Assembly: GCF_011045195.1 (NCBI RefSeq)
Contig: NZ_CP049199.1
Location: 1,612,001 to 1,676,000, forward strand
Direction of reading: 5' to 3'
Source of the DNA: Caulobacter soli
GTDB lineage: Bacteria > Pseudomonadota > Alphaproteobacteria > Caulobacterales > Caulobacteraceae
DNA length: 64,000 nucleotides
Shown: piece by piece, positions 47,927-62,198 of the stretch
Position numbering within the stretch: position 1 is the stretch's first letter
Layout: each line of letters opens with the position of its first letter
Program-made: the position numbers and the translations under genes
The notes under the pieces: model-generated
What the model saw: the letters and a program-made list of their open reading frames with translations, nothing else
Databases searched by the model: none
What the model was told of the DNA's origin: nothing

Positions 47927-48610
47927 ATGCCTGAGGGGCTGGAAGGAGCGGCGCGCGACTTGATCGACTGGACCCAGGAGGTCCTGCCCGACCGCGTCGT
48001 CGTCGCCCGGTCCCTGAGTGATCGCGACTGCGGGGAAGGGGTCGATCTGCGCCTGATCGGCCTGACCCCGCAGGCGACGCCGCGTACGATTTCGCCGCCG
48101 CTGACCCTGACCGCCGACTATCTGCTCACCGTCCGCGCCACCGATCCCATCGCGGAGCAGACGGGCGCCATGGCGCTGATGTTCGCGGCGATGGAGCACG
48201 AGGAGACCGAGGTGGTTGCGGGGCGCGACGCGTTGAAGCTCTGCGCGGACCTGGGCCTGCCCCCCGGACCCGGCTTTGTGTTGCGCGCCACGGTCACGAT
48301 CGCGCGGCGCCGTCCGGCCGATCGGGCGCCGCTGGTCCGCTTCCCGCTGACGATCGCCGCCGGTGAGCTCGGCGTCCTGCAGGGCTCGGTCCTGGGGCCG
48401 GGCGACACGCCGGTCGCCGGCGCCGTGGTGCGCGTCGAGGGCGTGGATCGCACCGCCCAGACCGACGCGTTCGGCCGCTTTCGCCTCCACGGTCCGGTCG
48501 GTGGCAAGAACAAACCCGTCCGTCTCAACGTCCGCGCTCGCGGGGTCGAGATCGACAGCGAGGTCGAGACCGACAGCCCCGTGATCCTTCGTCTACCGCT
48601 GGAGATTTGA
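47927..48610 (+). CDS. First gene of injection cluster: putative tail terminator with transthyretin-like C-terminal domain
   Basis: 227 residues, with no confident family for the N-terminal half (about 1-140): it contains YLLTVRATDPIAEQTGAMAL and FVLRATVTIARRR, beta/alpha mixed, of the size of small tail-terminator or cap proteins (Pvc16-like role). The C-terminal 80 residues resemble a carboxypeptidase-regulatory/transthyretin-like beta domain (LQGSVLGPGDTPVAGAVVRV, DAFGRFRLHGPVGG). It starts the co-directional contractile gene set and lies 1 base before the sheath start. GTG 47903 is an alternative start; ATG 47927 is used. Confidence 0.55.
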   Translation: MPEGLEGAARDLIDWTQEVLPDRVVVARSLSDRDCGEGVDLRLIGLTPQATPRTISPPLTLTADYLLTVRATDPIAEQTGAMALMFAAMEHEETEVVAGRDALKLCADLGLPPGPGFVLRATVTIARRRPADRAPLVRFPLTIAAGELGVLQGSVLGPGDTPVAGAVVRVEGVDRTAQTDAFGRFRLHGPVGGKNKPVRLNVRARGVEIDSEVETDSPVILRLPLEI

Positions 48611-48611
48611 C

Positions 48612-49838
48612 ATGCCGTCCTATTTGAGCCCCGGCGTCTACGTCGAGGAGATCGACTCTGGAACCCGTCCGATCGAGGCGGTGGGAACATCGACCGCCGG
48701 GTTCGTGGGAACCGCGCCCAATCCCGACGCCTTCGTCGACGAGGCCGTCGCGATCAACAACTGGAGCGAGTTCCGGCGACGCTACGTGCGCGACGGCGAC
48801 AAGGGCACCGACCTCGCCAACGCCGTCTACGGCTTCTTCCTGAATGGCGGTTCGCGCTGCTACGTGGTCAACACCAAGGCCGACGGGGCCATCGCGGGCA
48901 AGGGCAGGGGGCTGGACGCCCTGGCGGCCATCGACGAGATCGCCATCATCGCCGCCCCGGGGCGTACGGACCCGGCCTCGCACGGCGCCTTGCTGGACGC
49001 GGCGGAGTCGCTGAAGGACCGCGTGGCGATCCTGGACGCGCCGCCCCGCGTCGATGACGTCGAGGTCCTGACCCGCGCCGCCGACGGCAGCGCCGCGCCG
49101 CCCACGACCCCAGCCGCCGACGGTGACACGACCGCTTCGACACCGGCGCGCGGCAAAGGCCCCAAGCCGGGTCTTCGCCCCCGCGACTCCGACGGTGGCT
49201 ACGGCGCCTGCTACTTCCCCTGGCTGAAGGGCCGCGACGCGGTCGATCCCGACGCCCTCGCCCAAATCCCGCCCTCGGGCCACATGGCCGGTATCTACGC
49301 CCGCACCGACAGCGAGCGCGGTGTGCACAAGGCGCCCGCCAATGTCACGATCCGCGGCGCCGAAGGCCTGACCCAGATGCTGTCGCGGGCCGAGCAGGAC
49401 GTGCTCAATCCGGTCGGCGTCAATTGCATCCGGTTCTTCACCCGCGAGGGCGTGCGGGTCTGGGGCGCTCGGACCTTGGCGCCCAGCGCCAGCAACTGGC
49501 GCTACCTGAACGTCCGTCGGCTGTTCAACATGATCGAGGAGTCGATCGCCATCAGCACGCGCTGGGTGGTGTTCGAGCCCAACGCCGGCCCGCTGTGGAA
49601 GGATATCCAGCGCGACGTCGGGGCCTTCCTGACCCTGCTGTGGCGCCAAGGCGCTTTGGCTGGCGCGCGGCCCGAGGACGCCTTCTTCGTCAAGTGCGAC
49701 GCCGAAACCAACCCGCCCGAGGTGGTCGACGCCGGCCAGGTGGTGGTGGTCATCGGCATCGCGCCGGTGAAGCCCGCCGAATTCGTCATCTTCCGCATCG
49801 GCCAGACGGCGGTCGGATCCACCGTCGAAACCGCCTGA
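48612..49838 (+). CDS. Contractile tail sheath protein
   Basis: Sheath subunit, 408 residues. The N-terminus MPSYLSPGVYVEEIDSGTRP is the universal sheath opening (arm that links subunits), followed by GTSTAGFVGTAP; the C-terminal domain has NVRRLFNMIEESIAISTRWV, FEPNAGPLWKDIQRDVGAFL and VVVVIGIAPVKPAEFVIFRI, all standard for Pvc/Afp and phage sheaths. A low-complexity Ala/Thr/Pro insertion (about 156-192) probably faces outward. Only one sheath gene is present, unlike the several in Pvc/Afp systems. Confidence 0.95.
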   Translation: MPSYLSPGVYVEEIDSGTRPIEAVGTSTAGFVGTAPNPDAFVDEAVAINNWSEFRRRYVRDGDKGTDLANAVYGFFLNGGSRCYVVNTKADGAIAGKGRGLDALAAIDEIAIIAAPGRTDPASHGALLDAAESLKDRVAILDAPPRVDDVEVLTRAADGSAAPPTTPAADGDTTASTPARGKGPKPGLRPRDSDGGYGACYFPWLKGRDAVDPDALAQIPPSGHMAGIYARTDSERGVHKAPANVTIRGAEGLTQMLSRAEQDVLNPVGVNCIRFFTREGVRVWGARTLAPSASNWRYLNVRRLFNMIEESIAISTRWVVFEPNAGPLWKDIQRDVGAFLTLLWRQGALAGARPEDAFFVKCDAETNPPEVVDAGQVVVVIGIAPVKPAEFVIFRIGQTAVGSTVETA

Positions 49839-49863
49839 CCCCAAACCTTAGAGAGGATCCGTC

Positions 49864-50334
49864 ATGGCCACCAAGCCAGAAGAAGCAGCGGCGGCGCCCA
49901 AGGTTGGCGCTCTGCCCGACGTCTATCGCAACTACAACTTCATGCTTTCGTCCCGCGAGATGGGCGATGTGCGGTTCACCGAGTGCTTCGGCCTGGGCGT
50001 GCGGATCCATCCGATCCGTTATCGCGAGTCCGGCAGCGGCCAGATCGTGCGGACCCTGCCAGGCCCCGTCGAATACGCCGAGGTCACGCTGCGCTATGGC
50101 CTGACCAAGACCCCGGCGCTGTGGGATTGGCTCAAGGAAGTCCTGGCCGGCGGGACGCCGCGTCGCAACATCTCGATCGCGATGATGGATGTGAAGGGCA
50201 CGGCCGAGGTCCTGCGCTGGAACCTCGACAACGCCTGGCCCTGCGAATGGAGCGGCGTGTCGTTCGACGCCCTCGGCCGCGAAGTGGCGATCGAGGAACT
50301 CAAGCTGTCCTTCGACACCCTGACCCGAGCCTAG
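49864..50334 (+). CDS. Tail tube protein (gp19/Pvc1-like)
   Basis: Inner tube subunit, 156 residues. The family signature is visible: YRNYNFMLSSREMGDVRFTE, followed by GLTKTPALWDWLKEVLAG and ALGREVAIEELKLSFDTL, as in phage T4 gp19-type tubes of contractile injection systems. GAGAGGA precedes the ATG. One tube gene only; it directly follows the sheath. Confidence 0.93.
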   Translation: MATKPEEAAAAPKVGALPDVYRNYNFMLSSREMGDVRFTECFGLGVRIHPIRYRESGSGQIVRTLPGPVEYAEVTLRYGLTKTPALWDWLKEVLAGGTPRRNISIAMMDVKGTAEVLRWNLDNAWPCEWSGVSFDALGREVAIEELKLSFDTLTRA

Positions 50335-50337
50335 GCC

Positions 50338-51834
50338 ATGGCCCTTCGCCGCCTGCTGTCGGGTTGGCTGATCGCCATGGCCGCCCTGGCCCGCTCCGTG
50401 GCCCAGGCCCTGGAGCGCGCCTCGGAGGATCGGTCTCAGCTGGCGCCTGATCCCGTCATGGACGCCTTGGCCGAGCGCTATCCCGGCGCGCCGGCCCATT
50501 GGCTGGCGCACGTGGCCCAGCGGACGGTCGAACTGGCGAATGCGGGTGAGGCGCCGTTGTCGCTGAACAGCGATCCGACGGCCTGGCCCGTCAGGCCGGA
50601 CAGCTTGACGCCGCTCGCGACGCCGCCGCTGCCGGAGCGCCCGCCCGTCGTGCGTGAGCCGGCTCCGGCCCGGCGTGACGCCGTGGTCCCGACCCTGGCC
50701 GCGCTACGCGATCGATCCTCCGAAGTCTGGCGCAGGCCCGACGACGCGCCGAGACGGCGACCCCGGCCGGTGTTCGCCGCCTCGGAGCCCGCGCCCATGC
50801 GGCCCGCGCGGGCGGTGTCGACGTCCGGCGCAGCACGTCGACCGCGTGTGACATTGACCGTGGTCAGTGCGCCGTCTCAAGCGGCTCCGATTGCGTCGGA
50901 AGGCACGGCGCCGGCGCCCAGCGTCTCCTCGACCGAGAGGTCCCCGCTTGGAACGGCGTGGTCGCAAGCGCCGGCGCCGCCTTCGTCAAAGGCGCAACCC
51001 ACAGCTCCTGGACCGGCGGAAACGCCACCGGCGGGCCACGTCTTTTCGCCAGCGCCTGTGATCGATCCGGGAAAGGCGCGGTTGGAGACGAACCCAGAAC
51101 GAGTCGATCCGTCATCCGTCGCTCGTCGGCGAAAGCCATGGTTCTTCGCCAGGCCTCGACCTTCAACGGCTCCGAAGCGGCGTAGGGCAGGGGACGAAGC
51201 GGAAGCAGTCGAGGTCGATCCTGTATCGACGCCTCGCGCCGCCTTCACCGTCTCGACCTCGGACCCTCATGCCGTTTCGCCCGAACCGGCTCGGTCGAAC
51301 CGGACGCCGTCGACCGCGCGGCGCTCGATCTTCCGGTCTCTTGCCGGGTTAGGGGCCGGGCGACCGCGACGCGTCGAGCGCTTTCGGGTTTCGGGTCCAG
51401 TCGTCTCGAAGGCAGGGCCATCGATCGACGCGGCCTTGTCTGAGTTGGGCACGAACCGCCCCGCGTCCTCCTTCGCGCCGTCGCCACTAAGGTCGTCGCC
51501 CCGTGCCGCGGTCGGCTTTCCACGCTTCGGCTTGGCCGCGCCGGCGCGCGCGACCGAGGATCCGAAGTTCCAAACTCTTGTCGATCCATTGGCGCGCTGG
51601 CCTTCGAGCGCGTGGTCGCCTAATCGCGAACCAGACTCCGCCGACAAGCGACCGACCTACGCGACGTCGCGCCAGACGCCTTCGCGCCGCTCGCACTTCG
51701 CCGAGGTGTCGCCGGACGACCGCTGGCCGGCGCTGCCGCCATCCACATTTGCGCCGCCGCTCGCGGTGGAAGCCCCGACTCCGCGCTGGGATCAGTTGGC
51801 GCGTGAGCAGGAGGAGGGCCGATGGAGCGTGTAG
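50338..51834 (+). CDS. Large, mainly disordered cluster protein of unknown role
   Basis: 498 residues, starting 3 bases after the tube stop. Only the ends look ordered: an alpha-helical N-terminus (about 1-75: LSGWLIAMAALARSVAQALE, HWLAHVAQRTVELANAG) and a short Trp-rich C-terminal peptide (DDRWPALPPSTF; PRWDQLAREQEEGRWSV). The 380 residues between are Pro/Ala/Ser/Arg-rich, low complexity and presumably unstructured. I recognise no family. Its position (between tube and hub genes) is where contractile systems carry assembly or tape-measure-linked proteins; a flexible tether or length scaffold is possible. The following gene overlaps by 13 bases. Confidence 0.7.
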   Translation: MALRRLLSGWLIAMAALARSVAQALERASEDRSQLAPDPVMDALAERYPGAPAHWLAHVAQRTVELANAGEAPLSLNSDPTAWPVRPDSLTPLATPPLPERPPVVREPAPARRDAVVPTLAALRDRSSEVWRRPDDAPRRRPRPVFAASEPAPMRPARAVSTSGAARRPRVTLTVVSAPSQAAPIASEGTAPAPSVSSTERSPLGTAWSQAPAPPSSKAQPTAPGPAETPPAGHVFSPAPVIDPGKARLETNPERVDPSSVARRRKPWFFARPRPSTAPKRRRAGDEAEAVEVDPVSTPRAAFTVSTSDPHAVSPEPARSNRTPSTARRSIFRSLAGLGAGRPRRVERFRVSGPVVSKAGPSIDAALSELGTNRPASSFAPSPLRSSPRAAVGFPRFGLAAPARATEDPKFQTLVDPLARWPSSAWSPNREPDSADKRPTYATSRQTPSRRSHFAEVSPDDRWPALPPSTFAPPLAVEAPTPRWDQLAREQEEGRWSV

Positions 51835-52598
51835 CCTTCCTGCTGGAGCGGTCGGGCGAGCGGATCTCGTGCCTGCTCAATCCCGAGAACCTCGAAGCGC
51901 GGCGCACCGCCGGCGTGCGGACGCGGGCGGCCGGCGGCGGCTTCCTGACCGGGGTGGCGCGATCCGAGGACCCCCTGATCGCCACCGGCGGCGGGGTCAC
52001 CGAATACGACTTGAACCTGCTGTTCGACGTCGAGGTCGCCCGCGAAGGCCGCCCGTCGACCGCGCCGGAAGACGGCCAGGGCCCGGCCGAGGACGATGAC
52101 GTCCGAGCTTTGACCCGGCCACTTTGGGACCTCACCGAGAACGCCGTCGCGGCAGATGGTTTCGCCGCCCCGCCCACGGTGCGGTTCATCTGGGGCAAGT
52201 CCTGGAACATTCCCGGCGTGGTGCTGCACGTGTCCGAGCGCCTGGAGCGGTTCAACGCCGACGGTGCGCCTCGCCGTTCGTGGCTGAGCCTGCGCCTGCG
52301 ACGCGTCGAGGATTCCGAGCCGCGCCCGGCGCCCGCCCGCCCGGTCACCCCACAGTTCGAGGCGCCGTCCGATCTCGACGGTGGTTCGGTCGACCAATTT
52401 CCGGCCGTCGACATGCCGGTCGACAATGAAGGCCTGCCGCTGAAGCGCTTCGATCAAGTGGCCGACGACGGCTATGGCGATCCCGCCCTATGGCCCGACG
52501 TCGCCGCCTACAACGGTGTCGACGATCCCCTGAACATCCCGGAGGGCACGACCATCGTGCTGCCGTCCCTGACGACCCTGTTGGAGGCGCGGGCATGA
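51822..52598 (+). CDS. LysM-containing tube-initiator/hub protein (Pvc7/gp53-like)
   Basis: 258 residues resembling the contractile-system tube-initiator protein that joins tube to baseplate. The N-terminal part (MERVAFLLERSGERISCLLN, FDVEVAREGR, WNIPGVVLHVSERLERFNAD) has the CIS tube-initiator pattern, and the C-terminal 45 residues (PLKRFDQVADDGYGDPALWP, VDDPLNIPEGTTIVLP) form a LysM-like module typical of Pvc7/Afp7 and phage gp53. GGAGGAGGG lies just before the ATG. Confidence 0.85.
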   Translation: MERVAFLLERSGERISCLLNPENLEARRTAGVRTRAAGGGFLTGVARSEDPLIATGGGVTEYDLNLLFDVEVAREGRPSTAPEDGQGPAEDDDVRALTRPLWDLTENAVAADGFAAPPTVRFIWGKSWNIPGVVLHVSERLERFNADGAPRRSWLSLRLRRVEDSEPRPAPARPVTPQFEAPSDLDGGSVDQFPAVDMPVDNEGLPLKRFDQVADDGYGDPALWPDVAAYNGVDDPLNIPEGTTIVLPSLTTLLEARA

Positions 52599-54109
52599 CT
52601 TCGATCTTCGCCAATCGTCCGCTGCGGGCCCGCTTGGACGGCGCGCCACTGGACCCCGCCTTGGGGCGTTATGCGGTGTCGGCCTTCGTGCGCCAGGCCT
52701 TGAACGCCCCGGCCATGGCCGAACTGGTGTTCGCCGATCCGCCGGCCGATACGCTGACCAGCCTGCGCCTGGGCGCGGCGTTGGCCTTCGCGGTCGACGG
52801 CTCGGGCGATTTATTCGAGGGCGAGATCACCGCGGTGGAGTATCAGCACGACGCCGCTCAGGGGCGGGTCGTGCGGCTGCGCGCGCTCGACAAGCTGCAC
52901 AGGGCGCGTCTGCGCCAGCGGGCTCGGGCCGTGATCGACACGACGGTCGCGGATCTGGCGGGCCAGATGGCCAGCGACCTGGGTCTGGATTTCCACTGCG
53001 CCGAGCATCCGCCGACCCGCGCCCTGATCATCCAGCACGACCAGAACGACTTCGACCTGGTGGTCGACCTGGCGCGCGACGCCGGCCTCTATCTGGCGCT
53101 GGAGGGGGATGAGCTGCGGCTGATCAGTCTGGCCGGCGAGGGGGATCCGATCCCGCTGCGGATGCGGCGGGAGATCATCCAGGCCCGCGCCTCGGCGGGC
53201 GCGGATTCGCTCCGTCCCTGGACCGGCGCCCAGTCATGGGACCCCTCTCGCGCTGTCGCCGCCAACGCCCGGGCCGGACTGGCTCGCCAGGACGCCGAGG
53301 AACTGCGCGACGGCGGGCTGACGGCCTTTCCGGATCTGGGGGGGCGGACCTTGTTCAACCGCCTGGCCGCCGACGCCGCCGAGGCCGAGAGCCTGGCCCA
53401 GGCGGATCTCGACCGGGCCGTGGCTCGCGCCGTGCTGCTGGACGCGACGGTCGAGGGCGACACTCACCTGCGGCCCGGTCGGCCGGTGAACCTTGAGGGC
53501 GTCGGCGATCTGGTCGACGGCCGCTGCGTGGTGACCCGCGCCCTGCATCGGTTCGAGGAAGCGCGCGGCTATGTGGTCGAGATCTCGACCGAGCCGCCGA
53601 CACGTCCCGACCGTCCCCGCGCGCCGGCCTTTACCCTGGGTCGGGTGACCGACGCCGACGACCCGGCCGGTCTGGCGCGGGTGCGGGCTCGGCTGCCGGT
53701 GTTGGGCGATGTCGAGACCGGCTGGATGTCGGTGTTGCTGCTGGGCGCAGGCGCCGAGAAGGGCGTGGCGATCCTGCCGGAGCCGGACGACGACGTGCTG
53801 GTGGTGTTTCCGGACGGCGATCCGGCGCGCGGCGTGGTGCTGGGCGGTCTCTACGGCGAGCGTGTCGCGCCCGGCGTGCGCGGGGCCAGGGCGGCCGGCG
53901 CCCGAGCCTTCACCGTGCGGACGCCGGGCGGTCAGGTCTTGACCCTGGACAGTGTCGACGCCTTGGCCCGGCTGGAGACGCGCGCGGGCGGCTTGATCGA
54001 GTTCGGCCCCGGCGGCTCGCGCCTGCGGGCCAGTGGCGACCTGGTCATCGAGGCCCCGGGCCGCCGGCTGACCATCCGCGCCGCCGCCGTCGCGTTCGAG
54101 GAGGGCTGA
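52595..54109 (+). CDS. Spike protein (VgrG / gp27-gp5-like, Pvc8)
   Basis: Central spike, 504 residues: a gp27-type double beta-barrel (about 1-335: FEGEITAVEYQHDAAQGRVV, HDQNDFDLVVDLARDAGLYL) and a gp5 OB-fold (about 345-430: DPAGLARVRARLPVLGDVET, DDDVLVVFPDGDPARGVVLG), then a short beta-strand stem. There is no lysozyme domain. The ATG overlaps the previous stop by four bases. With the PAAR-like tip gene next, it forms the membrane-piercing needle. Confidence 0.93.
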   Translation: MTSIFANRPLRARLDGAPLDPALGRYAVSAFVRQALNAPAMAELVFADPPADTLTSLRLGAALAFAVDGSGDLFEGEITAVEYQHDAAQGRVVRLRALDKLHRARLRQRARAVIDTTVADLAGQMASDLGLDFHCAEHPPTRALIIQHDQNDFDLVVDLARDAGLYLALEGDELRLISLAGEGDPIPLRMRREIIQARASAGADSLRPWTGAQSWDPSRAVAANARAGLARQDAEELRDGGLTAFPDLGGRTLFNRLAADAAEAESLAQADLDRAVARAVLLDATVEGDTHLRPGRPVNLEGVGDLVDGRCVVTRALHRFEEARGYVVEISTEPPTRPDRPRAPAFTLGRVTDADDPAGLARVRARLPVLGDVETGWMSVLLLGAGAEKGVAILPEPDDDVLVVFPDGDPARGVVLGGLYGERVAPGVRGARAAGARAFTVRTPGGQVLTLDSVDALARLETRAGGLIEFGPGGSRLRASGDLVIEAPGRRLTIRAAAVAFEEG

Positions 54110-54111: not shown

Positions 54112-54456
54112 ATGCTGTGGTTGACCCAGGACGCGACGCTGGTCTGCGATCATGGCGGCCGGGTGGGCATCGCCCCGACTCAGACCCTGGTGCGGATCAA
54201 GGACCGGTTGGCGCTGGTGAACCCCAATCCGCAGTCGCGGCCGATCTCGGCCTGTCCGAACGCCAATCCGGTCATCGGCCTGCGACCCTGCCTGACGACC
54301 CTGGTCGTCAAGGAAGGCTATTCGCGCTTCGTCACCATCGGCGGTCGGGCGGTGTGCCTGGACTCGGTGACGGGACTTACCGACGGGTCGCCGCCGGGCA
54401 CGGTCAATTATCGCGTGGTCGACCCCGGCCAACGCCTCGTGGCGGCGGGAGGGTGA
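54112..54456 (+). CDS. PAAR-like spike-tip protein
   Basis: 114 residues, two bases after the spike gene. Beta-rich; it has several Cys/His that could bind a tip metal: TLVCDHGGRV near the start and ISACPNANPV, LRPCLTTLVV, GGRAVCLDSV later. Size and position match the PAAR-repeat cone that sharpens VgrG-type spikes. Family not matched directly, so called from context plus Cys/His pattern. Confidence 0.7.
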   Translation: MLWLTQDATLVCDHGGRVGIAPTQTLVRIKDRLALVNPNPQSRPISACPNANPVIGLRPCLTTLVVKEGYSRFVTIGGRAVCLDSVTGLTDGSPPGTVNYRVVDPGQRLVAAGG

Positions 54457-54458: not shown

Positions 54459-54896
54459 ATGAAGACCGTGCGGGGCATCCGGTTCGAGGGCGCGGAGCTG
54501 GGCGGGGCGACGTCCGAGCTGCGGCGGCCGGCGGGACTGATCCTGTCGCCGGCCGGGCGGCTGGCCGATGTCAGCGGTCACGACGCGGTGCGTCAGGCGA
54601 TCATCCTGCTGCTGACCACCATCCCCGGCGAGCGGGTCATGAGGCCCAGCTATGGCTGTCCGCTGCATCGGCTGATGTTCGCGCCCAACGACGCCACGAC
54701 GGCGGGGCTGGCCATCCACTATGTGCGCCAGTCGCTCAAGCGGTGGGAGCCGAGGATCGAGATCGTGCGGCTGGACGCCGGCGTCGATCCCGCCGCGCCC
54801 AGCCAGCTGGTGGTGTCGCTGGACTACCGGATGCGCAGCAGCAACCAGCCTGGCCAGCTGGAATTCGCCCTCGACCTGCGCGGGGAGGCCGCCTGA
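54459..54896 (+). CDS. Baseplate wedge protein gp25 (GPW/gp25 family)
   Basis: 145 residues, gp25-like: ILLLTTIPGERVMRPSYGCP carries the family LxT.xGER...YGC motif. Wedge component nucleating sheath attachment in contractile tails, conserved in T6SS (TssE), phages and eCIS. Overlaps the next gene start (TGATG). Confidence 0.94.
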   Translation: MKTVRGIRFEGAELGGATSELRRPAGLILSPAGRLADVSGHDAVRQAIILLLTTIPGERVMRPSYGCPLHRLMFAPNDATTAGLAIHYVRQSLKRWEPRIEIVRLDAGVDPAAPSQLVVSLDYRMRSSNQPGQLEFALDLRGEAA

Positions 54897-57427
54897 TGCC
54901 GCTGCCCACGCCCAAGCTGGACGACCGCAGCTTCGCCGATCTGATGGCCGACGCCGTCAAGGTCATTGATCGCTCGTGCCCGGAATGGACCGATCGCAAT
55001 CCCAGCGATCCGGGCATCACCCTGCTGGAGACTTTCGCCTATCTGACCGACACGATGCTGTACCGGCTCAATCGCGTGCCGGAGAAGCTCTACGTCAGCC
55101 TGCTGAACCTGGTCGGCGCCCAGGTCCACCCTCCGGCCGCGGCGGCGGCGACGCTGACCTTCACGCGCACCAACGGCAATGCGCGGGTCACGATCCCGGC
55201 TGGCGCGCGTATCGCAACCAGCGATGGCTCGGTGACCTTCGTGGTGACCCAGGCGGCGGTGCTGGCCGCCGACCAGAAGAGCGTCGACGCGCCAGCTCTC
55301 CACTGCGACCTGACCGAGGCGGAGTCGGTCGGAACAGGAACGGGCGCGCCCGGCCAGAGCGTGCAGATCAAGCGTCCTCCAATCATCGCCGCGTCGGGCG
55401 ACGGCCTGGACCTGATCGTCGGCGTCGAGGCGCAGAGCGCCGAATTGGCCGATGGGGCGGTGTCGCGCACCCTGGGCGACAGGAGCTATCGGATCTGGCG
55501 GGAGGTGGTCAGCTTCGCCGACGCCGCCCCGACCGACTGTGTCTATCGCGTCGATCGCGCCATGGGCCGCATCCAGTTCGCGCCCGCCGGGACCGGCGAG
55601 GGCTCGACGCCGCTGTCGGCCGTGCCCGCCCTGGGGCGTGACATCCGGGTCTGGTATCGCGGCGGCGGAGGACGGGCCGGCAATGTGGCGCCCGGCGCGC
55701 TCACGGTCTTCAAGACGCCGATCCCCGACCTGGCGGTGACCAACGCCAAGCGCGCCGCCGGCGGCGCCGACGCCGAGAGCATTCAGGCCGCGATGCGCCG
55801 TGGCCCTTTGGAGCTGACCTCGATGCGCTGCGCGGTTACGGCACGGGATTTCGAGCGCCTGGCGATCGCCGACCGCTCAGTGGCGCGGGCCAAGGCCTAC
55901 GCCCAATCGCAAGTCTGGGCCCATGCGGCGCCGGGCGTGGTGGAGATCCTGCTGGTGCCGGATGTGGATCTCACCAAGCTGCCCGACGGCGCGATCACGG
56001 CTCAGGCGGTGATCGACCAGCGTACCGAGGAGGTCCGGACGCGCGTGCAGGGCGCCGTCGACCAGCGTCGACCGCTGGGCGTGCAGACCTCGGTGGGCTG
56101 GGCGCGCGTGCGGCCGGTGTCGGTGGCGGCCCGCGTGGTGGTCAGCCGAGAGGAGGACGCGCCAGCGGTCGAGGCTCGGCTTCGCGTTCGCCTCAACAAG
56201 CTGTTCTCACCGCTGCGCGACGAGCCGTTCGGCCAGATGTTGCGCGCGTCGGATGTCTACGAGGCCATGCTGGCCGACCCCAGCGTGCGTTACGCCGACC
56301 AACTTAAGCTGACGATCGGCGAGGCGCCGGATCGGGACGTGTCGGACCTGCTGCGCGATCCCCATCAGGCGCGCACCTGGTTCGCGGCCACCAACCAGGG
56401 CCTGCACCGCAGCCTCGACGACGGCGGCACCTGGTCGGTGGTGTTCAAGGCCGACGGCGACCGGCCGCTGTTCGTGCGCCGTCATCGCGACCGGCCGGGC
56501 CTAGTCGCCCTGGGCGTTGTGCGCAAGGCTGGCGGCGCCATCCATGTGTCTCGTGACTGCGGCGAGACCTGGAAGACCGAGGCCGCGGTGTTCAACAGCG
56601 ACGTGTCGGACGCCGACTGGGTCGATCGCGAGGGCTCGCCCCTGCTGTTGATCGCCACGGGGGAGGGGCTGCGCCAGCTCAAGCCGTTCGGCGACGCCGG
56701 ACCGGCGCCTGTGGTGGTCGACAAGACTCGCGACACCAAGGGCTTCTACGCGGTGGCCACCTCGGTGTCGTCGGCCGGGGTCGTCCAGGTGGCGGTGGCC
56801 GCGCGGGTCAAGGGCGGGGTCTATCTGTCGGCCCTGGGCGGGGTGTCCGACAGCTTCCATTCGATCGGCCTTTCGGGACAGGACATCCGCAGCCTGTCGG
56901 TGCAGCGCTTCAACGCCCGCGACTTCTTGTGGGCGGGGGCGGCGGCCGAGGCGGGGCAGCAGGGCTCCGGCGCGTTCCGGGTGGAACTGCGCTCGGGCGG
57001 AGCCGACGATCCCGAGGGCTTCAAGCCGTTCAATGTCGGCTGGCAGGGCGGCTCTTGCGAAGGCCTGGCCTTCGCCGACCAGTGGGTGTTCGCCGGCTCG
57101 AACCGTGGAGGCGTGCTGGCGCTGGACACCACGGTGGCCGCGCCGGCCTGGCGCGCCGCGCCGCTCGACGCCGGTCTGCCGATCCGGGACACCGAGCGGT
57201 TGCTGCACGTGGTGTCCAGCGTGGCGGCGGCGCCCGTGGCGAGCGGGACGCCCATGGTGTTCGCCGGTGGTCCGATGGGCGTCTATCGCAGCCTGGACGG
57301 CGCGCTGCATTTCGCCACCGCCTCGGCCACGGTGTTCACCGACCGCATCCCGCTGCCGCCCAACTGGCTCTACTGCGCCGACGAGCACCACCTGTCGGTG
57401 GTGATCGACGACGATACGGGGGGCTGA
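54896..57427 (+). CDS. Baseplate J-like protein fused to a beta-propeller domain
   Basis: 843 residues. The first ~485 (LDDRSFADLMADAVKVIDRS, DPGITLLETFAYLTDTMLYR, then a double barrel to the TIGEAPDRDV region) are a baseplate J/gp6-like (Pvc11/Afp11) wedge protein. Residues ~490-843 are Asp-box/BNR-like propeller repeats: RTWFAATNQGLHRSLDDGGT, GGAIHVSRDCGETWKTEA, FAGGPMGVYRSLDGALHF. A baseplate subunit carrying a propeller is uncommon; each of the several copies per baseplate would display a possible glycan- or receptor-binding disc. Length is nearly double a normal gpJ. Confidence 0.88.
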   Translation: MPLPTPKLDDRSFADLMADAVKVIDRSCPEWTDRNPSDPGITLLETFAYLTDTMLYRLNRVPEKLYVSLLNLVGAQVHPPAAAAATLTFTRTNGNARVTIPAGARIATSDGSVTFVVTQAAVLAADQKSVDAPALHCDLTEAESVGTGTGAPGQSVQIKRPPIIAASGDGLDLIVGVEAQSAELADGAVSRTLGDRSYRIWREVVSFADAAPTDCVYRVDRAMGRIQFAPAGTGEGSTPLSAVPALGRDIRVWYRGGGGRAGNVAPGALTVFKTPIPDLAVTNAKRAAGGADAESIQAAMRRGPLELTSMRCAVTARDFERLAIADRSVARAKAYAQSQVWAHAAPGVVEILLVPDVDLTKLPDGAITAQAVIDQRTEEVRTRVQGAVDQRRPLGVQTSVGWARVRPVSVAARVVVSREEDAPAVEARLRVRLNKLFSPLRDEPFGQMLRASDVYEAMLADPSVRYADQLKLTIGEAPDRDVSDLLRDPHQARTWFAATNQGLHRSLDDGGTWSVVFKADGDRPLFVRRHRDRPGLVALGVVRKAGGAIHVSRDCGETWKTEAAVFNSDVSDADWVDREGSPLLLIATGEGLRQLKPFGDAGPAPVVVDKTRDTKGFYAVATSVSSAGVVQVAVAARVKGGVYLSALGGVSDSFHSIGLSGQDIRSLSVQRFNARDFLWAGAAAEAGQQGSGAFRVELRSGGADDPEGFKPFNVGWQGGSCEGLAFADQWVFAGSNRGGVLALDTTVAAPAWRAAPLDAGLPIRDTERLLHVVSSVAAAPVASGTPMVFAGGPMGVYRSLDGALHFATASATVFTDRIPLPPNWLYCADEHHLSVVIDDDTGG

Positions 57428-57429: not shown

Positions 57430-58008
57430 ATGGATCGCGCCCGTATCGCCCGCCTGCTGCCCGAGACTTACCAGGCGGCCATCCCGCCAGAGATACCGTC
57501 CAGCGACCCGGCCGCCGTGGTTCGGAAGAAGCCCCTGGCCGCGGTGCTGGAGGTGATGGAGGTGCTGCAGGCGCCGGCCGAGGAGGCCCTGGCGACCCTG
57601 GACGCCCGCATCGATCCGATGCGCGCGCCGCCAAGCTTCGCCCTGATGCTGGCGCGCTGGCTGGACCTGGACCGCTACCTGGACTGGACCGGCGGCCGCC
57701 CGGGCGAGGGCGCGCCGCGCTACGCCGCGGGGCTAGGCCGGCTGCGGTTGCTCTGCCTGGAGGCGGCCGAACTGGCGCGCTGGCGCGGCACCCGCCGAAC
57801 CCTCGAACGCATCCTGACCGTGGCGACCGGGGTATCCGGCTACGCGGTGCAGGAGAACCCGCCGGACCTCAAGGGCGTCGCCCGTAGCTTCCATCTGCGC
57901 GTCGTCGCCCCGGTGGCCGCGCGCCCTCTGGCCGACCTAGTGCGTCGAATCGTCGACGAAGAGCGTCCTGCTTACACGACCTACGAAATCGAATTTTCCG
58001 CAGCCTGA
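57430..58008 (+). CDS. Baseplate tail protein I-like (Pvc12/gpI)
   Basis: 192 residues, two bases after the J-like gene. Motifs RLLPETYQAAIPPE, PSFALMLARWLDLDRYLDWT and RWRGTRRTLERILTVATGVS are typical of tail protein I partners of J; C-terminal (VAPVAARPLADLVRRIVDEE) is the family end. Together J and I form the wedge around the spike. Confidence 0.88.
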   Translation: MDRARIARLLPETYQAAIPPEIPSSDPAAVVRKKPLAAVLEVMEVLQAPAEEALATLDARIDPMRAPPSFALMLARWLDLDRYLDWTGGRPGEGAPRYAAGLGRLRLLCLEAAELARWRGTRRTLERILTVATGVSGYAVQENPPDLKGVARSFHLRVVAPVAARPLADLVRRIVDEERPAYTTYEIEFSAA

Positions 58009-58031: not shown

Positions 58032-59420
58032 ATGCCGAGTTTCGAGATTCCGGACGGCCCCACGACCGTCGCCCTGAAGACGGAGGCCGGATTCCACAAG
58101 GGAACGGCCGTGTTCGGCGTCACCAACAAGACCGGAGAAGGGTTGACCGGCCGGTTCAGCGTTCAGGTCCAGGGTAACGGCAAGGCCGAATGGTATTCGG
58201 TGCAGGGCGAGCCCGAGCGGCCCGTCGCGGCCGGTGAGACCCAGACGGTCACGGTGGTGGCCAAGATCCCCGCCGCGACCCCGGCTGGCCAGCATCGGAT
58301 CAAGCTGAGAGCCACGAACGTCAACGATCCCGACAATGACAGCACCGAGAGCGCGGCGGCGATCGTCACGATCCCGGCCGTCGCCAAGCCGCCGGCCAAG
58401 AAGAAGCCCTTCCCGATGTGGATCCTGGCGGTGGTCGGCGGCGTGCTGGTGCTGGTGATCGGAGTGATCATCGCCGTCGTCGTGATGAACGGCGGTTCGA
58501 AGGTGCCGAAGGTCGTCGGGCTGGACTATCCCGCCGCCGTCGCCGCGCTGAAGGAGAAGGGCTACGCGGCCGAGCCGGAGATCAGGGAGGCCGCGCCGGA
58601 CAAGCCCTTGGACAAGGTGTTCAAGCAGGATCCCGAAGGCGGGACGAAGGCCGATCCCAAGACGGTGAAGGTCAAGCTGACCGTCGCGGGCGTGCCGACG
58701 GTCGCTGTGCCCGGCGTGACCGGACTGGATTATCCGACCGCTGTCGCCGCGCTGGAAAAGAGCGGCTTCAAGGCCGGACCGGCGATCGAGGAGGTCTCCA
58801 GCGACAAGAGCCCTGGCCTGGTGTTCAAGCAGGAACCGGCGGCGGATGAACAGGCCGATCCCAAGACGATCGAGGTCAAACTGACGGTGGCCGTCGGCGA
58901 GACGGTGGACGTGCCGGTCGTCCTCGGCAAGCCGTTCGTCGCCGCCCAAGCCCTGTTGGAGGATCGCGGGTTCACCGTCGCCTCGCCGGTGGTCGGACAG
59001 GCTTCGGGCAAGCAGCCGGACGCCGTGCTGGTTCAGGATCCGGTCGGCGACACCAAGGCCCCCAAGGGCAGCGTCGTGCGGCTGACCATCGATCCCGGCG
59101 TCATCGTGCCCAACCTGATCACCCCCCAGATCAACGGGATCGCGGGCATTCAGGCCCTGAAGAACGCCGGGGCTGACATCGGGTCGATCAGCTCCAGCTG
59201 CCGCGGGACGCCGAACATGATCGTCGCCCAGAGCATCGAGCCGAAGACCAAGGTCGCCCAGGGCACCAGGGTGAACATCACGATCGCCAGCGCCACGGCC
59301 AACATCAACGCCAGCGTGCTCTGCCGTTCGGTGGTGGACCTGCAGGTCCTGACCTTCAGCAACCAGGTGAGGGGAACCAAGGTGCTGACGCCCAACGTGA
59401 GGACCTTGCAGCCGAAGTGA
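58032..59420 (+). CDS. Membrane protein: cytoplasmic Ig-like domain, one TM helix, four PASTA domains
   Basis: 462 residues. No signal peptide: residues 1-115 form an Ig/FN3-like beta domain (TVALKTEAGFHKGTAVFGVT, WYSVQGEPERPVAAGETQTV), residues 120-127 are Lys-rich, and 129-152 is one TM helix (ILAVVGGVLVLVIGVIIAVV). Four PASTA repeats follow (about 157-220, 223-288, 291-355, 357-421; VPKVVGLDYPAAVAALKEKG and so on), facing the periplasm. PASTA binds muropeptide/beta-lactam-like ligands and is rare outside PASTA kinases and PBPs in Gram-positive bacteria. Topology copies a PknB-type kinase with the kinase replaced by an Ig domain. Likely an inner-membrane/peptidoglycan anchor or trigger of the contractile machine. 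Confidence 0.85.
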   Translation: MPSFEIPDGPTTVALKTEAGFHKGTAVFGVTNKTGEGLTGRFSVQVQGNGKAEWYSVQGEPERPVAAGETQTVTVVAKIPAATPAGQHRIKLRATNVNDPDNDSTESAAAIVTIPAVAKPPAKKKPFPMWILAVVGGVLVLVIGVIIAVVVMNGGSKVPKVVGLDYPAAVAALKEKGYAAEPEIREAAPDKPLDKVFKQDPEGGTKADPKTVKVKLTVAGVPTVAVPGVTGLDYPTAVAALEKSGFKAGPAIEEVSSDKSPGLVFKQEPAADEQADPKTIEVKLTVAVGETVDVPVVLGKPFVAAQALLEDRGFTVASPVVGQASGKQPDAVLVQDPVGDTKAPKGSVVRLTIDPGVIVPNLITPQINGIAGIQALKNAGADIGSISSSCRGTPNMIVAQSIEPKTKVAQGTRVNITIASATANINASVLCRSVVDLQVLTFSNQVRGTKVLTPNVRTLQPK

Positions 59421-59481: not shown

Positions 59482-60543
59482 ATGCCGAGTTTCGAGATTC
59501 CGGACGGCCCCACGACCGTCGCCCTGAAGAAGGAGGGCGGTTTCCACAAGGGCAGCGCCGTCTTCGGCGTCACCAACAAGACCGGGGAGGGCCTGACCGC
59601 GCGGTTCAGCGTCCAGGTCCAGGGCGACGGCAAGCCCGAGTGGTATTCGGTCCAGGGGGAGCCGGAACGGCCGGTCGCGGCGGGTGAGAATCAGACGGTG
59701 ACCGTGGTCGCCAAGATCCCAGCCGCGACGCCGCCGGGCCAGCATCGGATCAAGCTGCGGGCGACCAATGTCAACGATCCCGACAACGACAGCACCGACA
59801 GCACGGCGGCGACGGTCACCGTTCCCGCCGCCAGCGCTCCGCCGCCAAAACCAAAGCCCTTCCCCTGGTGGATCCTGGCGGTGGTCGGTGGGGTGCTGGT
59901 GCTGGTGATCGGCGCGATCATCGCCATCGTGGTGCTGACCGGCGGATCCAAGGTTCCCAGCGTCGTGGGCCAACCCTATGCCGAGGCCGTCAAGGTGCTC
60001 GACAAGGCCGGCTACAAGACCGTCAAGCGAGCCGACAAGGAGACCGGCGAGAAGCCGCCCGAGACGGTGCTGGATCAGACGCCGGCCGCTGACACCAAGG
60101 CCAAGAAGACCGAGCCGGTGCAACTGACCGTCGCGACGCCTCTGCCGGTGGTCGTGCCGGAAGAACCGCCGACCGATCAGGCTAACGCCGTTTGCGACCC
60201 GGCGGTCGGAACCTGCATCGAGGGCTTCGTCTGGCGCGCGGGCGGTCCCGACGACCGGGTCTGCGTCACGCCGGAGTCGCGGTATCTGGCCGCCGTGGAA
60301 AACAGTCAGGCGGCCGCTCGTCGTAACCCGAACGGCGGTCCCTACGGCCCGGATACCTGCCTGATGGGCTATGTCTGGCGTGACGGCTTTCCCAACGACC
60401 ACGTCTGCGTGAGCGGTGAACGACGCACGGTGGTGGCCCAGGAGAACGCGGCGGGTCCGTCGCGCTATCAGGCCTGCAGGCCGAAGATCGTGCTGACGCC
60501 GCGACCGATTACGCGCCCGAAGATCGTCTTGACCCCGCGCTAG
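59482..60543 (+). CDS. Paralogous Ig-TM-PASTA protein with Cys-rich repeats
   Basis: 353 residues; its first ~155 (Ig domain, TM 129-152) are nearly the same as the preceding gene, and the first 48 bases match exactly, a recent tandem duplication. Then one PASTA repeat (about 157-226) is followed by a Cys-rich region with two copies of a short module (CIEGFVWRAGGPDDRVCV; CLMGYVWRDGFPNDHVCV), known from actinobacterial exported proteins, and a tail with the duplicated RPKIVLTPR. Likely a second anchor variant of the machine with different periplasmic reach. Confidence 0.85.
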   Translation: MPSFEIPDGPTTVALKKEGGFHKGSAVFGVTNKTGEGLTARFSVQVQGDGKPEWYSVQGEPERPVAAGENQTVTVVAKIPAATPPGQHRIKLRATNVNDPDNDSTDSTAATVTVPAASAPPPKPKPFPWWILAVVGGVLVLVIGAIIAIVVLTGGSKVPSVVGQPYAEAVKVLDKAGYKTVKRADKETGEKPPETVLDQTPAADTKAKKTEPVQLTVATPLPVVVPEEPPTDQANAVCDPAVGTCIEGFVWRAGGPDDRVCVTPESRYLAAVENSQAAARRNPNGGPYGPDTCLMGYVWRDGFPNDHVCVSGERRTVVAQENAAGPSRYQACRPKIVLTPRPITRPKIVLTPR

Positions 60544-60555
60544 CGCCCAACCGAC

Positions 60556-60579
60556 GGGCCCCGATGGCGAGCGGGGCCC
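60556..60579 (+). other. GC hairpin before the HExxH membrane protein start
   Basis: Inverted repeat arms 60556-60563 and 60572-60579 (8 bases, 8-base loop), between the PASTA paralogue stop and ATG 60597. The AAGGAG of the next gene lies right after it, so it could modulate translation or mark partial termination. Confidence 0.4.
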
Positions 60580-60596
60580 GCAAGGAGATCAAGTTC

Positions 60597-61574
60597 ATGG
60601 AGCGGATTTTCTCTCTCGAAGCGATCCTCGGATCGTTGGCGTTCGGCCTAGTCGGGGCGATCCTGGCCCTGATCGTCCGGCTGGTGAAAGGCGACGGCGC
60701 GGACTCGCTCTGGCGGGCGCTGGAGACTTTCCTCACGGCGACGTTCGGCGCCTTTCTGGCTAGGACCTTCATCAGCATCATGCTCAGCATCGGCGGGGAC
60801 TCCGATGCGGCGATTACGGTCACCAGTCTGCTGTTCTTCATCTGGCCGGGCGTGGTGAACCTGATCTCCCTGGGCTTCGGCCATCCGGTGATCGGGGTGG
60901 ACGCCCTGCTATGGATCGCCCTGGTGGTCGGGGGGCTTGTCGGCCTGTTCGACGGGCTGTGGGCGACCCACAAATGGCTGGGCCTGGGCGCGCCGGCCTT
61001 CCTGCTGGACGTCACCTGGGGGCTGGGCGGCAACACCAACGGCGTGCTGATGCACTTGATCAACTTCGCCTGGGGCAATCACGGCGACGACGCCACCGAA
61101 ATCCGCAAGGACGCCCACCGCTATGTGGATGGGTTCGCGGTGAAGCGGGGTTTCGCCTTCACCCAGGGCGCGGTGATGAGCAACACCGGCAGTTGGGGGC
61201 CGTCGTCGGATCTGTTCCGGCACGAGTCGATCCACATCTGGCAGAACCGGATTCTCGGGCCGTTCTTCTGGTTCTCCTATGTCGGCTGGATGGCGCTGAC
61301 CATCATCCCGGCGCTGATCGCGGGCCTGATCGATTCCAGCCGCCGGATCGGCGACGCCATCACCTGGTGGACCTATTTCGACAATCCGTGGGAGGTGATG
61401 GCCTACGGCATCGCCAATCCGTCGGACCGGACCGGCCAGGTATTCATGGACGGCAGCGGCACGGTGACGGGCTGGGTCTGCTGGCCCTGGCCGCTGGCGA
61501 TCGTCCTGTCGGTGGTCGGCGTGTTGGGTCTGGGGACCGCGTTCGTGGCGATCATGGTGGCCGGTTATGGCTGA
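60597..61574 (+). CDS. Polytopic membrane protein with HExxH zincin motif
   Basis: 325 residues with about six hydrophobic helices (four in the first 130 residues, two at the end). The loop between (about 130-225) has FAFTQGAVMSNTGSWGPSSD and then FRHESIHIWQ, where HESIH at residues 209-213 is an HExxH zinc-protease motif followed by WQ, as in DUF4157-type proteases common in eCIS clusters. The local pattern resembles DUF4157 (xFTxG, HExxHxxQ) but embedded in a membrane protein. AAGGAG nine bases upstream supports ATG 60597. Could be an effector or a maturation protease; activity unproven. Confidence 0.75.
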   Translation: MERIFSLEAILGSLAFGLVGAILALIVRLVKGDGADSLWRALETFLTATFGAFLARTFISIMLSIGGDSDAAITVTSLLFFIWPGVVNLISLGFGHPVIGVDALLWIALVVGGLVGLFDGLWATHKWLGLGAPAFLLDVTWGLGGNTNGVLMHLINFAWGNHGDDATEIRKDAHRYVDGFAVKRGFAFTQGAVMSNTGSWGPSSDLFRHESIHIWQNRILGPFFWFSYVGWMALTIIPALIAGLIDSSRRIGDAITWWTYFDNPWEVMAYGIANPSDRTGQVFMDGSGTVTGWVCWPWPLAIVLSVVGVLGLGTAFVAIMVAGYG

Positions 61575-61583
61575 GCCGCGTCG

Positions 61584-62198
61584 ATGAAGGTCGTCATCAT
61601 TGTCCTGATCCTGGTGGTCATCGGCTTCGTCGTGGCGATCGGCATGGCCGTCTATCGCGCCACCACGCCGCCCGCGCCGCCGTCGGCGCACGGGCCGCCC
61701 ACCAAGAGCAATGGCGAGATCGACGATGACGCCCTGGCGAGCTGGGAGCCGCCGCCCATGGCCGCGATCATGGGCCGCCTGTCGCGTCCGTTCGCGCCCA
61801 AGCTGCTGAAGACCCCGGTCGAGATCTCGGGCCAGGCCGGCTCGGGCCTCGAGGCCGACAAGCCCGGGCAGCTGGCGGTGGCGCCGGCCGACAAGGCCAT
61901 GCGCATCGCCCGTCTGCGGCTGGTGGCCGGCCGGGCGGCGATCGCGACCTATCATTGCGTGGCCGGGAAGGGGGAGACCTGTGATCAGGTCGTCTGTCTA
62001 TGCCCGCAGGACGCGGTCGTGGCAGCAGACGACGCCGAAGCTTGCGGCGATCCCTGGCGCAAGGCTCGCTCGATCGGCGACGACAAGCTGCGCTGCCGCA
62101 AGAACGACGATGACGTCTCGGCCGTGATCTATCGGACGGGCGGGGCGATCTCGGTCGTGCCGATGGGCGGCGAGACAGCGACGGTGTCGATCCGCTGA
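61584..62198 (+). CDS. Single-pass membrane protein with Cys-containing periplasmic domain
   Basis: I do not recognise a family. 204 residues: an N-terminal TM/uncleaved signal anchor (about 3-25, VVIIVLILVVIGFVVAIGMA), a Pro-rich linker, and a soluble domain with six Cys in 118-170 (YHCVAGKGETCDQVVCLCPQ, EACGDPWRKARS, KLRCRKNDDDVS), which may form disulfides. It closes the cluster, 9 bases after the HExxH gene, and converges with the next gene (7 bases apart). Confidence 0.7.
   Translation: MKVVIIVLILVVIGFVVAIGMAVYRATTPPAPPSAHGPPTKSNGEIDDDALASWEPPPMAAIMGRLSRPFAPKLLKTPVEISGQAGSGLEADKPGQLAVAPADKAMRIARLRLVAGRAAIATYHCVAGKGETCDQVVCLCPQDAVVAADDAEACGDPWRKARSIGDDKLRCRKNDDDVSAVIYRTGGAISVVPMGGETATVSIR

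What the first reader, a model, noticed from the sequence alone, without database searches (positions are those of the whole stretch)
47927..62198. A contractile injection system with built-in membrane and peptidoglycan anchors
Seen: co-directional sheath, tube, LysM hub, VgrG-like spike, PAAR-like tip, gp25, baseplate J and tail protein I genes, immediately followed on the same strand, mostly with overlaps or gaps under 65 bases, by two Ig-TM-PASTA proteins, a polytopic HExxH protein and a single-pass Cys-rich protein. Known: Pvc/Afp/MAC extracellular particles use an AAA+ ATPase, tape measure and tail fibres, none of which is visible here; there are no head genes either. Inference: a cell-anchored contractile machine (compare thylakoid- or membrane-linked CIS), in which PASTA domains sense or hold peptidoglycan. 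This combination is not one I know described.
Basis: partly seen in the sequence, partly recalled or inferred. Interest (0 to 1): 0.85.

Follow-up and report, generated by a model that had tools for sequence, protein, structure and literature searches.

The report
Contractile injection machine with wall-binding membrane anchors
A Caulobacter genome carries a compact phage-tail-like injection machine whose genes are followed, in relatives too, by membrane proteins with likely cell-wall-binding domains, which suggests a machine docked to the inside of its own cell envelope rather than released.

Summary
A 14-gene run (47903-62198) and a convergent membrane gene behind it encode a compact contractile injection system (CIS). 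In the slot where other CIS keep tail fibres lie two Ig-TM-PASTA proteins. The linkage is conserved: in 75 Caulobacter genomes, this sheath type and the Ig-PASTA protein occur in the same 7, and the same order recurs in Inquilinus, Polymorphobacter, Sphingomonas, Paracoccus, Rhodovulum and a Deinococcus plasmid. The CIS-type ATPase marker PF22977 is absent from this genome; one of the 7 genomes has it, beside another sheath. Baseplate J carries a predicted beta-propeller. The nearest working analogue is the Streptomyces cytoplasmic CIS, where the membrane protein CisA fills the same slot. Best explanation: a cytoplasmic CIS that docks at its own inner membrane through cytoplasmic Ig domains, with PASTA domains holding or reading peptidoglycan outside. 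Docking, trigger and target are inferred, not shown. New variant of a known kind.

The parts
47903..48610 (+). probable cap / tail terminator (Cis16, DUF4255-like) with a C-terminal carboxypeptidase-regulatory-like domain
   Evidence: profile comparison of 8 orthologues with 3 DUF4255 proteins: probability 88, E 3e-6; no Pfam DUF4255 hit; CarboxypepD_reg 3.7e-7, just below the Pfam cut-off; the Deinococcus counterpart is annotated carboxypeptidase-like
48612..49838 (+). contractile sheath (Cis2), short 408-aa type
   Evidence: Pfam PF04984/PF17482, PHROG 23; best solved relatives by profile 8bky and 8bl4, whose identical-sequence entries include 9gtp and 9gts, which are S. coelicolor
49864..50334 (+). 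inner tube protein (gp19 / TIGR02241); the only gp19 match in the genome
   Evidence: PF06841 2.6e-32; CIS5_fam 5e-24 and CIS1_fam 2.5e-6, both below cut-off; single match genome-wide
50338..51834 (+). Pro/Ala/Arg-rich, probably disordered 498-aa protein; conserved ends, divergent middle (294-527 aa in counterparts); role unknown (plug, ruler or cargo)
   Evidence: no Pfam/PHROG match; conserved N and C ends; outside Caulobacter tblastn finds it only in Inquilinus, elsewhere it is placed by slot and C-terminal motif
51822..52598 (+). LysM-type hub / tube initiator (Cis7)
   Evidence: PF19266 CIS_tube 4.8e-9; 9gtp_P LysM protein 8e-5
52595..54109 (+). VgrG-type spike (Cis8)
   Evidence: PF04717, PF05954; solved spikes, best 7aef_q then 9gtr_q
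54112..54456 (+). PAAR-like tip (Cis10 slot), named from position
   Evidence: no Pfam/PHROG/PDB hit; conserved at 45-65% identity outside Caulobacter
54459..54896 (+). gp25 baseplate wedge (Cis9)
   Evidence: PF04965 4.9e-25
54896..57427 (+). baseplate J (Cis11) with C-terminal beta-propeller (residues about 476-843)
   Evidence: PF04865, TIGR02243; 9gtp_1K 1.3e-55; AlphaFold2 best model mean pLDDT 79.5, Foldseek hits to propellers from E 3e-10
57430..58008 (+). tail protein I (Cis12-like, TIGR02242)
   Evidence: TIGR02242 3.2e-10, below cut-off; weak similarity to the S. clavuligerus gene in the same slot, 28% over 136 columns, E 1e-4 for that single comparison
58032..59420 (+). Ig-TM-PASTA protein 1: Ig/NEW3-like domain predicted cytoplasmic, TM 134-152, four PASTA domains outside
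   Evidence: PF03793 x4 2.1e-32, FixG_C 3e-6; topology
59482..60543 (+). Ig-TM-PASTA protein 2: same Ig and TM, one PASTA domain, Cys-containing tail
   Evidence: PF03793 3.4e-10; 54% identical to protein 1
60564..61574 (+). polytopic membrane protein with invariant HExxH and a later invariant Glu; candidate intramembrane zinc peptidase; accessory (absent from some cassettes)
   Evidence: invariant H209, E210, H213 and E266 in 47 rows; AlphaFold2 pLDDT 95.3; no Foldseek match in the PDB at E 0.001 or better
61584..62198 (+). small bitopic protein, N-terminal TM, outer domain with 6 Cys
   Evidence: TM 3-21; orthologues in Caulobacter, Inquilinus, Polymorphobacter, Sphingomonas and a MAG; Deinococcus, Paracoccus and Rhodovulum have an N-terminally anchored protein in the slot without detectable similarity
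62206..62952 (-). conserved polytopic membrane protein, convergent; part of the conserved cassette
   Evidence: found by tblastn in all 9 non-Caulobacter loci compared (39-64% identity; moved upstream in Paracoccus) and in the 8 Caulobacter stretches compared

Best explanation
A compact, host-encoded contractile injection system that assembles in the cytoplasm and docks at the inner face of the cell's own inner membrane. The Ig-TM-PASTA proteins take the place of tail fibres. Their N-terminal Ig-like domain faces the cytoplasm, where it can meet the baseplate: most plausibly the beta-propeller added to baseplate J (Cis11), otherwise the tail-I protein. Their PASTA domains lie in the periplasm, where they hold or read peptidoglycan. 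A wall or membrane signal passed through these proteins would trigger the baseplate; the sheath contracts and drives the spike-tipped tube through the cell's own envelope. The result is either programmed lysis or outward delivery; I think self-directed firing under envelope stress, as in Streptomyces, is somewhat more likely. Shown by sequence: components, conserved linkage, one-TM topology, lack of the CIS-type ATPase marker. Inferred: docking, propeller-Ig contact, peptidoglycan binding, trigger, direction and outcome.
For: Nearly complete CIS core, with cap and tip less certain. Sheath type and Ig-PASTA in exactly the same 7 of 75 Caulobacter genomes; the 15 other sheath-bearing genomes have none. 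Same order in Inquilinus, Polymorphobacter, Sphingomonas, Paracoccus, Rhodovulum and Deinococcus. All 5 plasmid records (three of them Rhodovulum) whose match covers 80% or more of baseplate J, propeller included, carry the PASTA gene. Topology: one TM, and 86 of 110 single-TM homologues have more K/R before it than after, so N-in. Published parallel: CisA, downstream of the baseplate genes in the usual fibre slot, is a membrane protein with cytoplasmic N-terminus, needed for firing, and Cis11 is its predicted partner (PMC12237407, passages).
Against: No localisation, interaction or structure data. PASTA domains here are untested for peptidoglycan binding. The K/R bias is modest: 24 of 110 tie or go the other way, and 10 of 120 were set aside. 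The Ig-PASTA proteins show no tblastn similarity to the S. clavuligerus CIS locus, so the CisA parallel is one of slot and topology. By sequence the tube is nearer to 9qgl, Afp1 and Pvc1 and the spike to 7aef than to the Streptomyces chains, and the sheath tree does not group this clade with S. clavuligerus. In Deinococcus the HExxH gene, not the PASTA gene, directly follows tail-I. Tail-I proteins are a modelled fibre docking site in other eCIS (PMC12923769, passages), so the propeller need not be the contact. The Ig-PASTA protein could also be a wall sensor merely co-regulated with the CIS.
Confidence: 0.58

Rival explanations
1. A released extracellular CIS (Afp/PVC-like) whose membrane proteins serve only assembly, immunity or export, and whose targeting protein is not recognised.
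For: Core proteins are homologous to Afp, Pvc and AlgoCIS proteins.
Against: No fibre family among the 14 + strand genes by Pfam at E 0.1; no PF22977 ATPase match in G000, while 5 of 75 Caulobacter genomes have one (4 over the cut-off), each within about 5.3 kb of a different, longer sheath. Lysis genes were not searched for as such.
Confidence: 0.15
2. A contact-dependent, T6SS-like device: docked at the membrane as proposed, but firing outward into neighbours, with the HExxH protein opening the wall or membrane.
For: An Ig-PASTA protein and the polytopic 62206-62952 protein recur in every cassette whose 3' flank was compared, and an N-terminally anchored small protein sits in the same slot; most hosts seen are Gram-negative.
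Against: No TssJ/L/M-like family in the cassette by Pfam (the rest of the genome was not searched for them); no effector-immunity pair recognised; HExxH gene missing from some cassettes.
Confidence: 0.2
3. A decaying or domesticated phage tail or tailocin, with the PASTA genes as unrelated neighbours.
For: Homology to phage tails; 1162 of 50,697 phage records have some sheath match.
Against: Tube 98-100% and baseplate J 91-93% identical in five Caulobacter cassettes; same gene order in two phyla; no phage record has a place covering 80% of the sheath; no head family among 22 window ORFs scanned outside the cassette, 7 of which had no family at all.
Confidence: 0.04
4. The Ig-PASTA proteins are loaded on or injected by the particle (needle or cargo) rather than anchoring it.
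For: [quoted passage not shown] a membrane-going cargo is reported for S. lividans SLP (PMC13277306, passages).
Against: Slot after the tail-I gene, where fibre genes lie in about 90% of cases (PMC12923769, passages); the N-terminal Ig part is the most constant part of the alignment.
Confidence: 0.1

Closest known systems
Streptomyces cytoplasmic CIS (CISSc, type IId) with membrane protein CisA
   Same: Best solved relatives of the sheath (by profile), of baseplate J and of the LysM hub; reported to lack fibres and tape measure; membrane protein directly after the baseplate genes with cytoplasmic N-terminus (PMC12237407, passages).
   Different: Here: one tube gene instead of two; no PF22977 ATPase (present in S. 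clavuligerus); Ig-PASTA in place of CisA with no detectable similarity; propeller on baseplate J (S. clavuligerus match stops at residue 472); further membrane proteins. Tube and spike are nearer to other CIS.
Thylakoid-anchored CIS of Anabaena (tCIS)
   Same: A CIS held in the producer's own membrane by a fibre-like protein and a baseplate extension (PMC8894136, passages).
   Different: There the anchor is Cis13 with a TM helix plus an extended Cis12, with a Cis19 crown; here it would be Ig-TM-PASTA and an extension of Cis11. No thylakoids.
Extracellular CIS (Afp, PVC, AlgoCIS)
   Same: Homologous sheath, tube and spike.
   Different: No recognised fibre or tape measure; no CIS-type ATPase marker in the genome.
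Type VI secretion system
   Same: Membrane-docked firing would be the same principle.
   Different: No TssJ/L/M-like family in the cassette by Pfam; tube, baseplate J and tail-I proteins match the eCIS-type TIGR02241/02243/02242 models.

Membership tests
Contractile injection system (core) | sheath, gp19 tube, Cis7 hub, VgrG spike, gp25, baseplate J, tail-I protein | tested here: met
   TIGR02242 and LysM are weak
Contractile injection system (core) | cap protein (Cis16 / DUF4255) | tested here: inconclusive
   hhalign probability 88, E 3e-6 with small profiles; no Pfam DUF4255 hit; no PDB cap protein among profile hits
Extracellular CIS (Afp/PVC-like) | AAA+ ATPase with winged-helix N domain (PF22977; the marker was taken from the S. 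clavuligerus ATPase) | tested here: not met
   0 matches in G000 and in 6 of the 7 cassette Caulobacter genomes; the seventh (G136) has one beside another sheath on another contig; 0 in 4 whole genomes (one of them among those 7) and 4 plasmids with the cassette, positive control found
Extracellular CIS (Afp/PVC-like) | tail fibre in the slot after tail-I | tested here: not met
   slot holds Ig-TM-PASTA; no fibre family in any of the 14 + strand genes by Pfam; profiles of fibre N-terminal domains (eBAP) were not available and structural search for a fibre was not done
Extracellular CIS (Afp/PVC-like) | tape measure | tested here: inconclusive
   no tape-measure family by Pfam or PHROGs; a 498-aa Pro-rich protein without family match sits before the hub
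Streptomyces type IId CIS with CisA | homologue of CisA | tested here: not met
   tblastn of both PASTA proteins against the S. clavuligerus locus gives no hit; the gene in the CisA slot there was taken as CisA from its position and TM
Streptomyces type IId CIS with CisA | two tube paralogues (Cis1a, Cis1b) | tested here: not met
   one PF06841 match in the genome
Streptomyces type IId CIS with CisA | particles cytoplasmic, firing depends on a membrane protein | not testable with these tools
   needs imaging and mutants
Thylakoid-anchored CIS | Cis13 with C-terminal TM helix, Cis12 extension, Cis19 crown | not tested
   no profile of these proteins was built; the tail-I protein has no hydrophobic stretch over the threshold
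Type VI secretion system | TssJ/L/M membrane complex and ClpV | not tested
   absent from the cassette by Pfam; the rest of the genome was not searched for them
Prophage / tailocin | head genes nearby | tested here: not met
   none among 22 window ORFs scanned outside the cassette; not every ORF of the window was scanned

The most novel reading that the evidence does not exclude
A distinct class of CIS, found in Alphaproteobacteria and Deinococcota, that has given up fibres, ATPase and release and is wired to the cell wall: PASTA domains monitor peptidoglycan, Ig domains couple to a propeller on Cis11, and wall damage makes the cell fire the machine through its own envelope, a wall-integrity death or defence switch.
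Probability: 0.3. Interest if true: 0.87.

Novelty: new variant of a known kind. Interest (0 to 1): 0.7.

Why it matters
How injection systems other than the T6SS reach and fire at the producer's own membrane is largely open; CisA in Streptomyces and the anchor in Anabaena are the worked cases I met. A conserved, unrelated membrane adaptor carrying a likely peptidoglycan-binding module, in a genus with good genetics and cryo-tomography (recalled), would make the question testable in a Gram-negative cell and would offer a wall signal as the trigger. It also suggests that a CIS can be kept, and carried on plasmids, without its usual ATPase nearby.

Tried and rejected
ATPase elsewhere: PF00004 gives 23 AAA matches in the genome. 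I fetched seven of those regions and read the longest frame of each. Four gave a recognisable AAA-type or P-loop frame; by eye (names recalled, not scanned) they look like a Pch2/TRIP13-type AAA protein, a MoxR-type protein, HslU and RadA. The longest frames of the other three (L046, L048, L050) were antisense to the match, so I did not name their genes; 16 of 23 matches were not looked at. The specific PF22977 search was then used and found none in G000.

Single origin of the label in a sheath tree: the 9 rows with known PASTA context fall inside one 24-row clade (98/99), but the other 15 rows of that clade are proteins with unknown neighbourhoods, so as coded the label needs 6 changes (at least 3 forced by starred branches), and nothing is claimed about gains or losses; several outgroup rows were long or truncated.

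Wider sampling added little. Class: 5 of 385 genomes have a sheath match at 1e-60, of which G000 and one sheath cut at a contig end (L041, 74%) are of this type. Sphingomonadaceae: 2 of 397, both already known; genus of S. horti: 1 of 6. In some searches only 4 candidates per genome were scored.


Full report
What is there. The window lies in a Caulobacter genome (close relatives of its proteins are named Caulobacter; assembly of 5.68 Mb in two contigs). Between 47903 and 62198 fourteen genes run on the + strand with gaps from -13 to +61 bases. The first ten form a compact contractile injection system: probable cap, sheath, one gp19-type tube protein, a Pro/Ala/Arg-rich protein, a hub protein, a VgrG-type spike, a PAAR-like protein, gp25, baseplate J and a TIGR02242 tail protein. 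Then come two Ig-TM-PASTA proteins, a polytopic protein with HExxH and a small bitopic protein. A convergent polytopic protein (62206-62952) closes the set. The next genes are ordinary chromosomal ones: an FAD-dependent oxidoreductase and a LysR regulator upstream, MlaA downstream. Of 19 further ORFs scanned in the window none has a phage head family; 7 of the 19 have no family.

The unit is conserved. A scan of one genome per species for the Ig-PASTA family returned 9 loci. In 8 of 9 the sheath-to-tail-I genes lie directly upstream in the same order (the Pro-rich gene is too divergent to be seen by tblastn in Polymorphobacter and Sphingomonas); the ninth (L036) starts at a contig edge with the end of a tail-I gene. 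Five of the nine are Caulobacter; the others are an alphaproteobacterial MAG, an Inquilinus MAG, Polymorphobacter multimanifer and Sphingomonas horti. In 75 Caulobacter genomes, 22 have some sheath match; 7 of these are full-length matches to this type (837 bits or more, the next best 255). The Ig-PASTA profile hits exactly those 7 and no other, on the same contigs as the sheaths. With unrelated genomes that coincidence would have odds of about 5e-10, but the genomes are related, so it is not 7 independent events. Plasmid records extend the range: the sheath query led to Deinococcus sp. AJ005 (60%), Paracoccus sp. MC1862 (56%) and Rhodovulum (48%), each with a gene annotated 'PASTA domain-containing protein' after the tail-I gene, with the HExxH gene in between in Deinococcus. 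Baseplate J matches in 54 plasmid records; only 5 cover 80% or more of it, and all 5 have the PASTA gene; three of the five are Rhodovulum, two of these near-identical. Three records with partial baseplate J matches were opened (S. clavuligerus, D. psychrotolerans, Nostoc) and list no PASTA gene in the stretch shown, nor does a Treponema stretch; the other 46 were not opened.

What varies. The PASTA gene is doubled in Caulobacter and Inquilinus and single in the other complete cassettes. The HExxH gene is present in Caulobacter, Inquilinus, the alphaproteobacterial MAG and Deinococcus, but not detected in the Polymorphobacter, Paracoccus or Rhodovulum loci; S. horti has only a distant relative (25%) on the other strand. 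The small bitopic protein has no detectable relative in Deinococcus, Paracoccus or Rhodovulum, where another N-terminally anchored protein holds the slot. The 62206-62952 protein was found in all 9 non-Caulobacter loci compared, moved upstream in Paracoccus. The Pro-rich protein keeps its ends (80-90% and 70-83% identity between the window and four Caulobacter relatives) but not its middle (37-42%), and its counterparts range from 294 to 527 aa.

No CIS ATPase. The ATPase of the S. clavuligerus CIS has a winged-helix domain PF22977 before its AAA domain. PF22977 has no match in this genome; 5 of 75 Caulobacter genomes have one (4 over the cut-off), each within about 5.3 kb of a longer sheath of another type. 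Only one of the 7 cassette genomes (G136) is among them, and its match lies beside its second sheath on another contig. Four whole genomes (one the L031 Caulobacter genome, already among the 75; one a MAG) and four plasmids with the cassette have none, while the S. clavuligerus record is found. The chromosomes behind the plasmids were not searched, and an ATPase of another family is not excluded. There is one sheath and one gp19 gene in the whole genome, so the tube and its adaptor layer are made by one protein or the adaptor is unrecognised.

Membrane proteins. The PASTA proteins have one strong hydrophobic stretch at residues 134-152 and no other. Of 120 listed homologues, 110 have one predicted TM in the first 260 residues, and 86 of these have more K/R in the 15 residues before it than after; 24 tie or go the other way, and 10 were set aside. 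This favours an Ig domain in the cytoplasm and PASTA domains outside. The HExxH protein models with pLDDT 95.3; H209, E210, H213 and E266 are invariant in 47 rows, which fits a zinc-peptidase site (motif knowledge recalled), and no solved structure matches it by Foldseek at E 0.001. The C-terminal part of baseplate J models as a beta-propeller (best of five models pLDDT 79.5, the others 45 to 69; 8 sequences in the alignment) and matches propellers in the PDB.

How it probably works. The best-studied parallel is S. coelicolor CISSc. From passages of PMC12237407: the cluster lacks fibres and a tape measure; [quoted passage not shown] it is a membrane protein with cytoplasmic N-terminus; contraction and function depend on it; Cis11 is its predicted partner. 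From passages of PMC8894136: in Anabaena a fibre-like protein with a TM helix and a baseplate extension anchor the CIS in thylakoids. From passages of PMC12923769: fibre genes lie after the tail-I and baseplate genes in about 90% of cases, and fibres may bind Afp12- or Afp11-type or tail-I proteins by modelling. The Caulobacter cassette puts a bitopic protein with an Ig domain inside and PASTA domains outside in that slot, and adds a propeller to Cis11. I infer that the Ig domain and the propeller (or the tail-I protein) meet, that PASTA domains grip or read peptidoglycan (known for PASTA in kinases and penicillin-binding proteins, recalled), and that firing crosses the cell's own envelope. 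None of these steps is shown.

What is new. By sequence it is a CIS. Sheath, hub and baseplate J are nearest, among solved structures, to the Streptomyces type, but tube and spike are nearer to other CIS, and the sheath tree does not join it to S. clavuligerus. It fails tested features of eCIS (ATPase marker, fibre by Pfam) and of the Streptomyces type (CisA homologue, two tube genes). I found no paper joining PASTA with CIS: 0 papers for 'contractile injection system' with 'PASTA domain', 3 for 'tail sheath' with 'PASTA domain', unrelated by title, 8 for 'eCIS' with 'PASTA', 7 listed and unrelated by title; the word does not occur in the main texts of four CIS papers searched. Subscription papers and preprints are not in the library, and the supplementary tables of eCIS catalogues were not read, so these loci may be listed there without comment.

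Noticed in passing
window 20458-24094: A KaiC-family ATPase gene followed by an overlapping hybrid histidine kinase / response regulator gene (Pfam).
   Followed up: no
window 50338-51834 and L060:20786-24934: In the S. clavuligerus CIS locus an unannotated open frame of 1383 codons, also Pro-rich, lies between the two tube genes; it may be the counterpart of the Pro-rich protein here.
   Followed up: partly
G000:C1:2511968-2512402 (L045): A Pch2/TRIP13-like AAA protein (by eye) elsewhere in the genome; possibly a defence system component.
   Followed up: no
Caulobacter genomes G101, G141, G196, G305, G311 and others: 15 of 75 Caulobacter genomes carry other sheath types only, mostly longer, several with two sheath genes close together; the genus holds several kinds of contractile tail.
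   Followed up: partly
L059:27537-27845 and L039:13269-13670: A small membrane protein of about 100-130 aa sits near the PASTA gene in Rhodovulum and near the distant HExxH relative in Sphingomonas horti, perhaps another accessory part.
   Followed up: no
HExxH family, P0291, P0295, P0308: HExxH homologues also occur in an Anaerolineae MAG and further Deinococcus species, so the system may reach a third phylum; neighbourhoods not seen.
   Followed up: no
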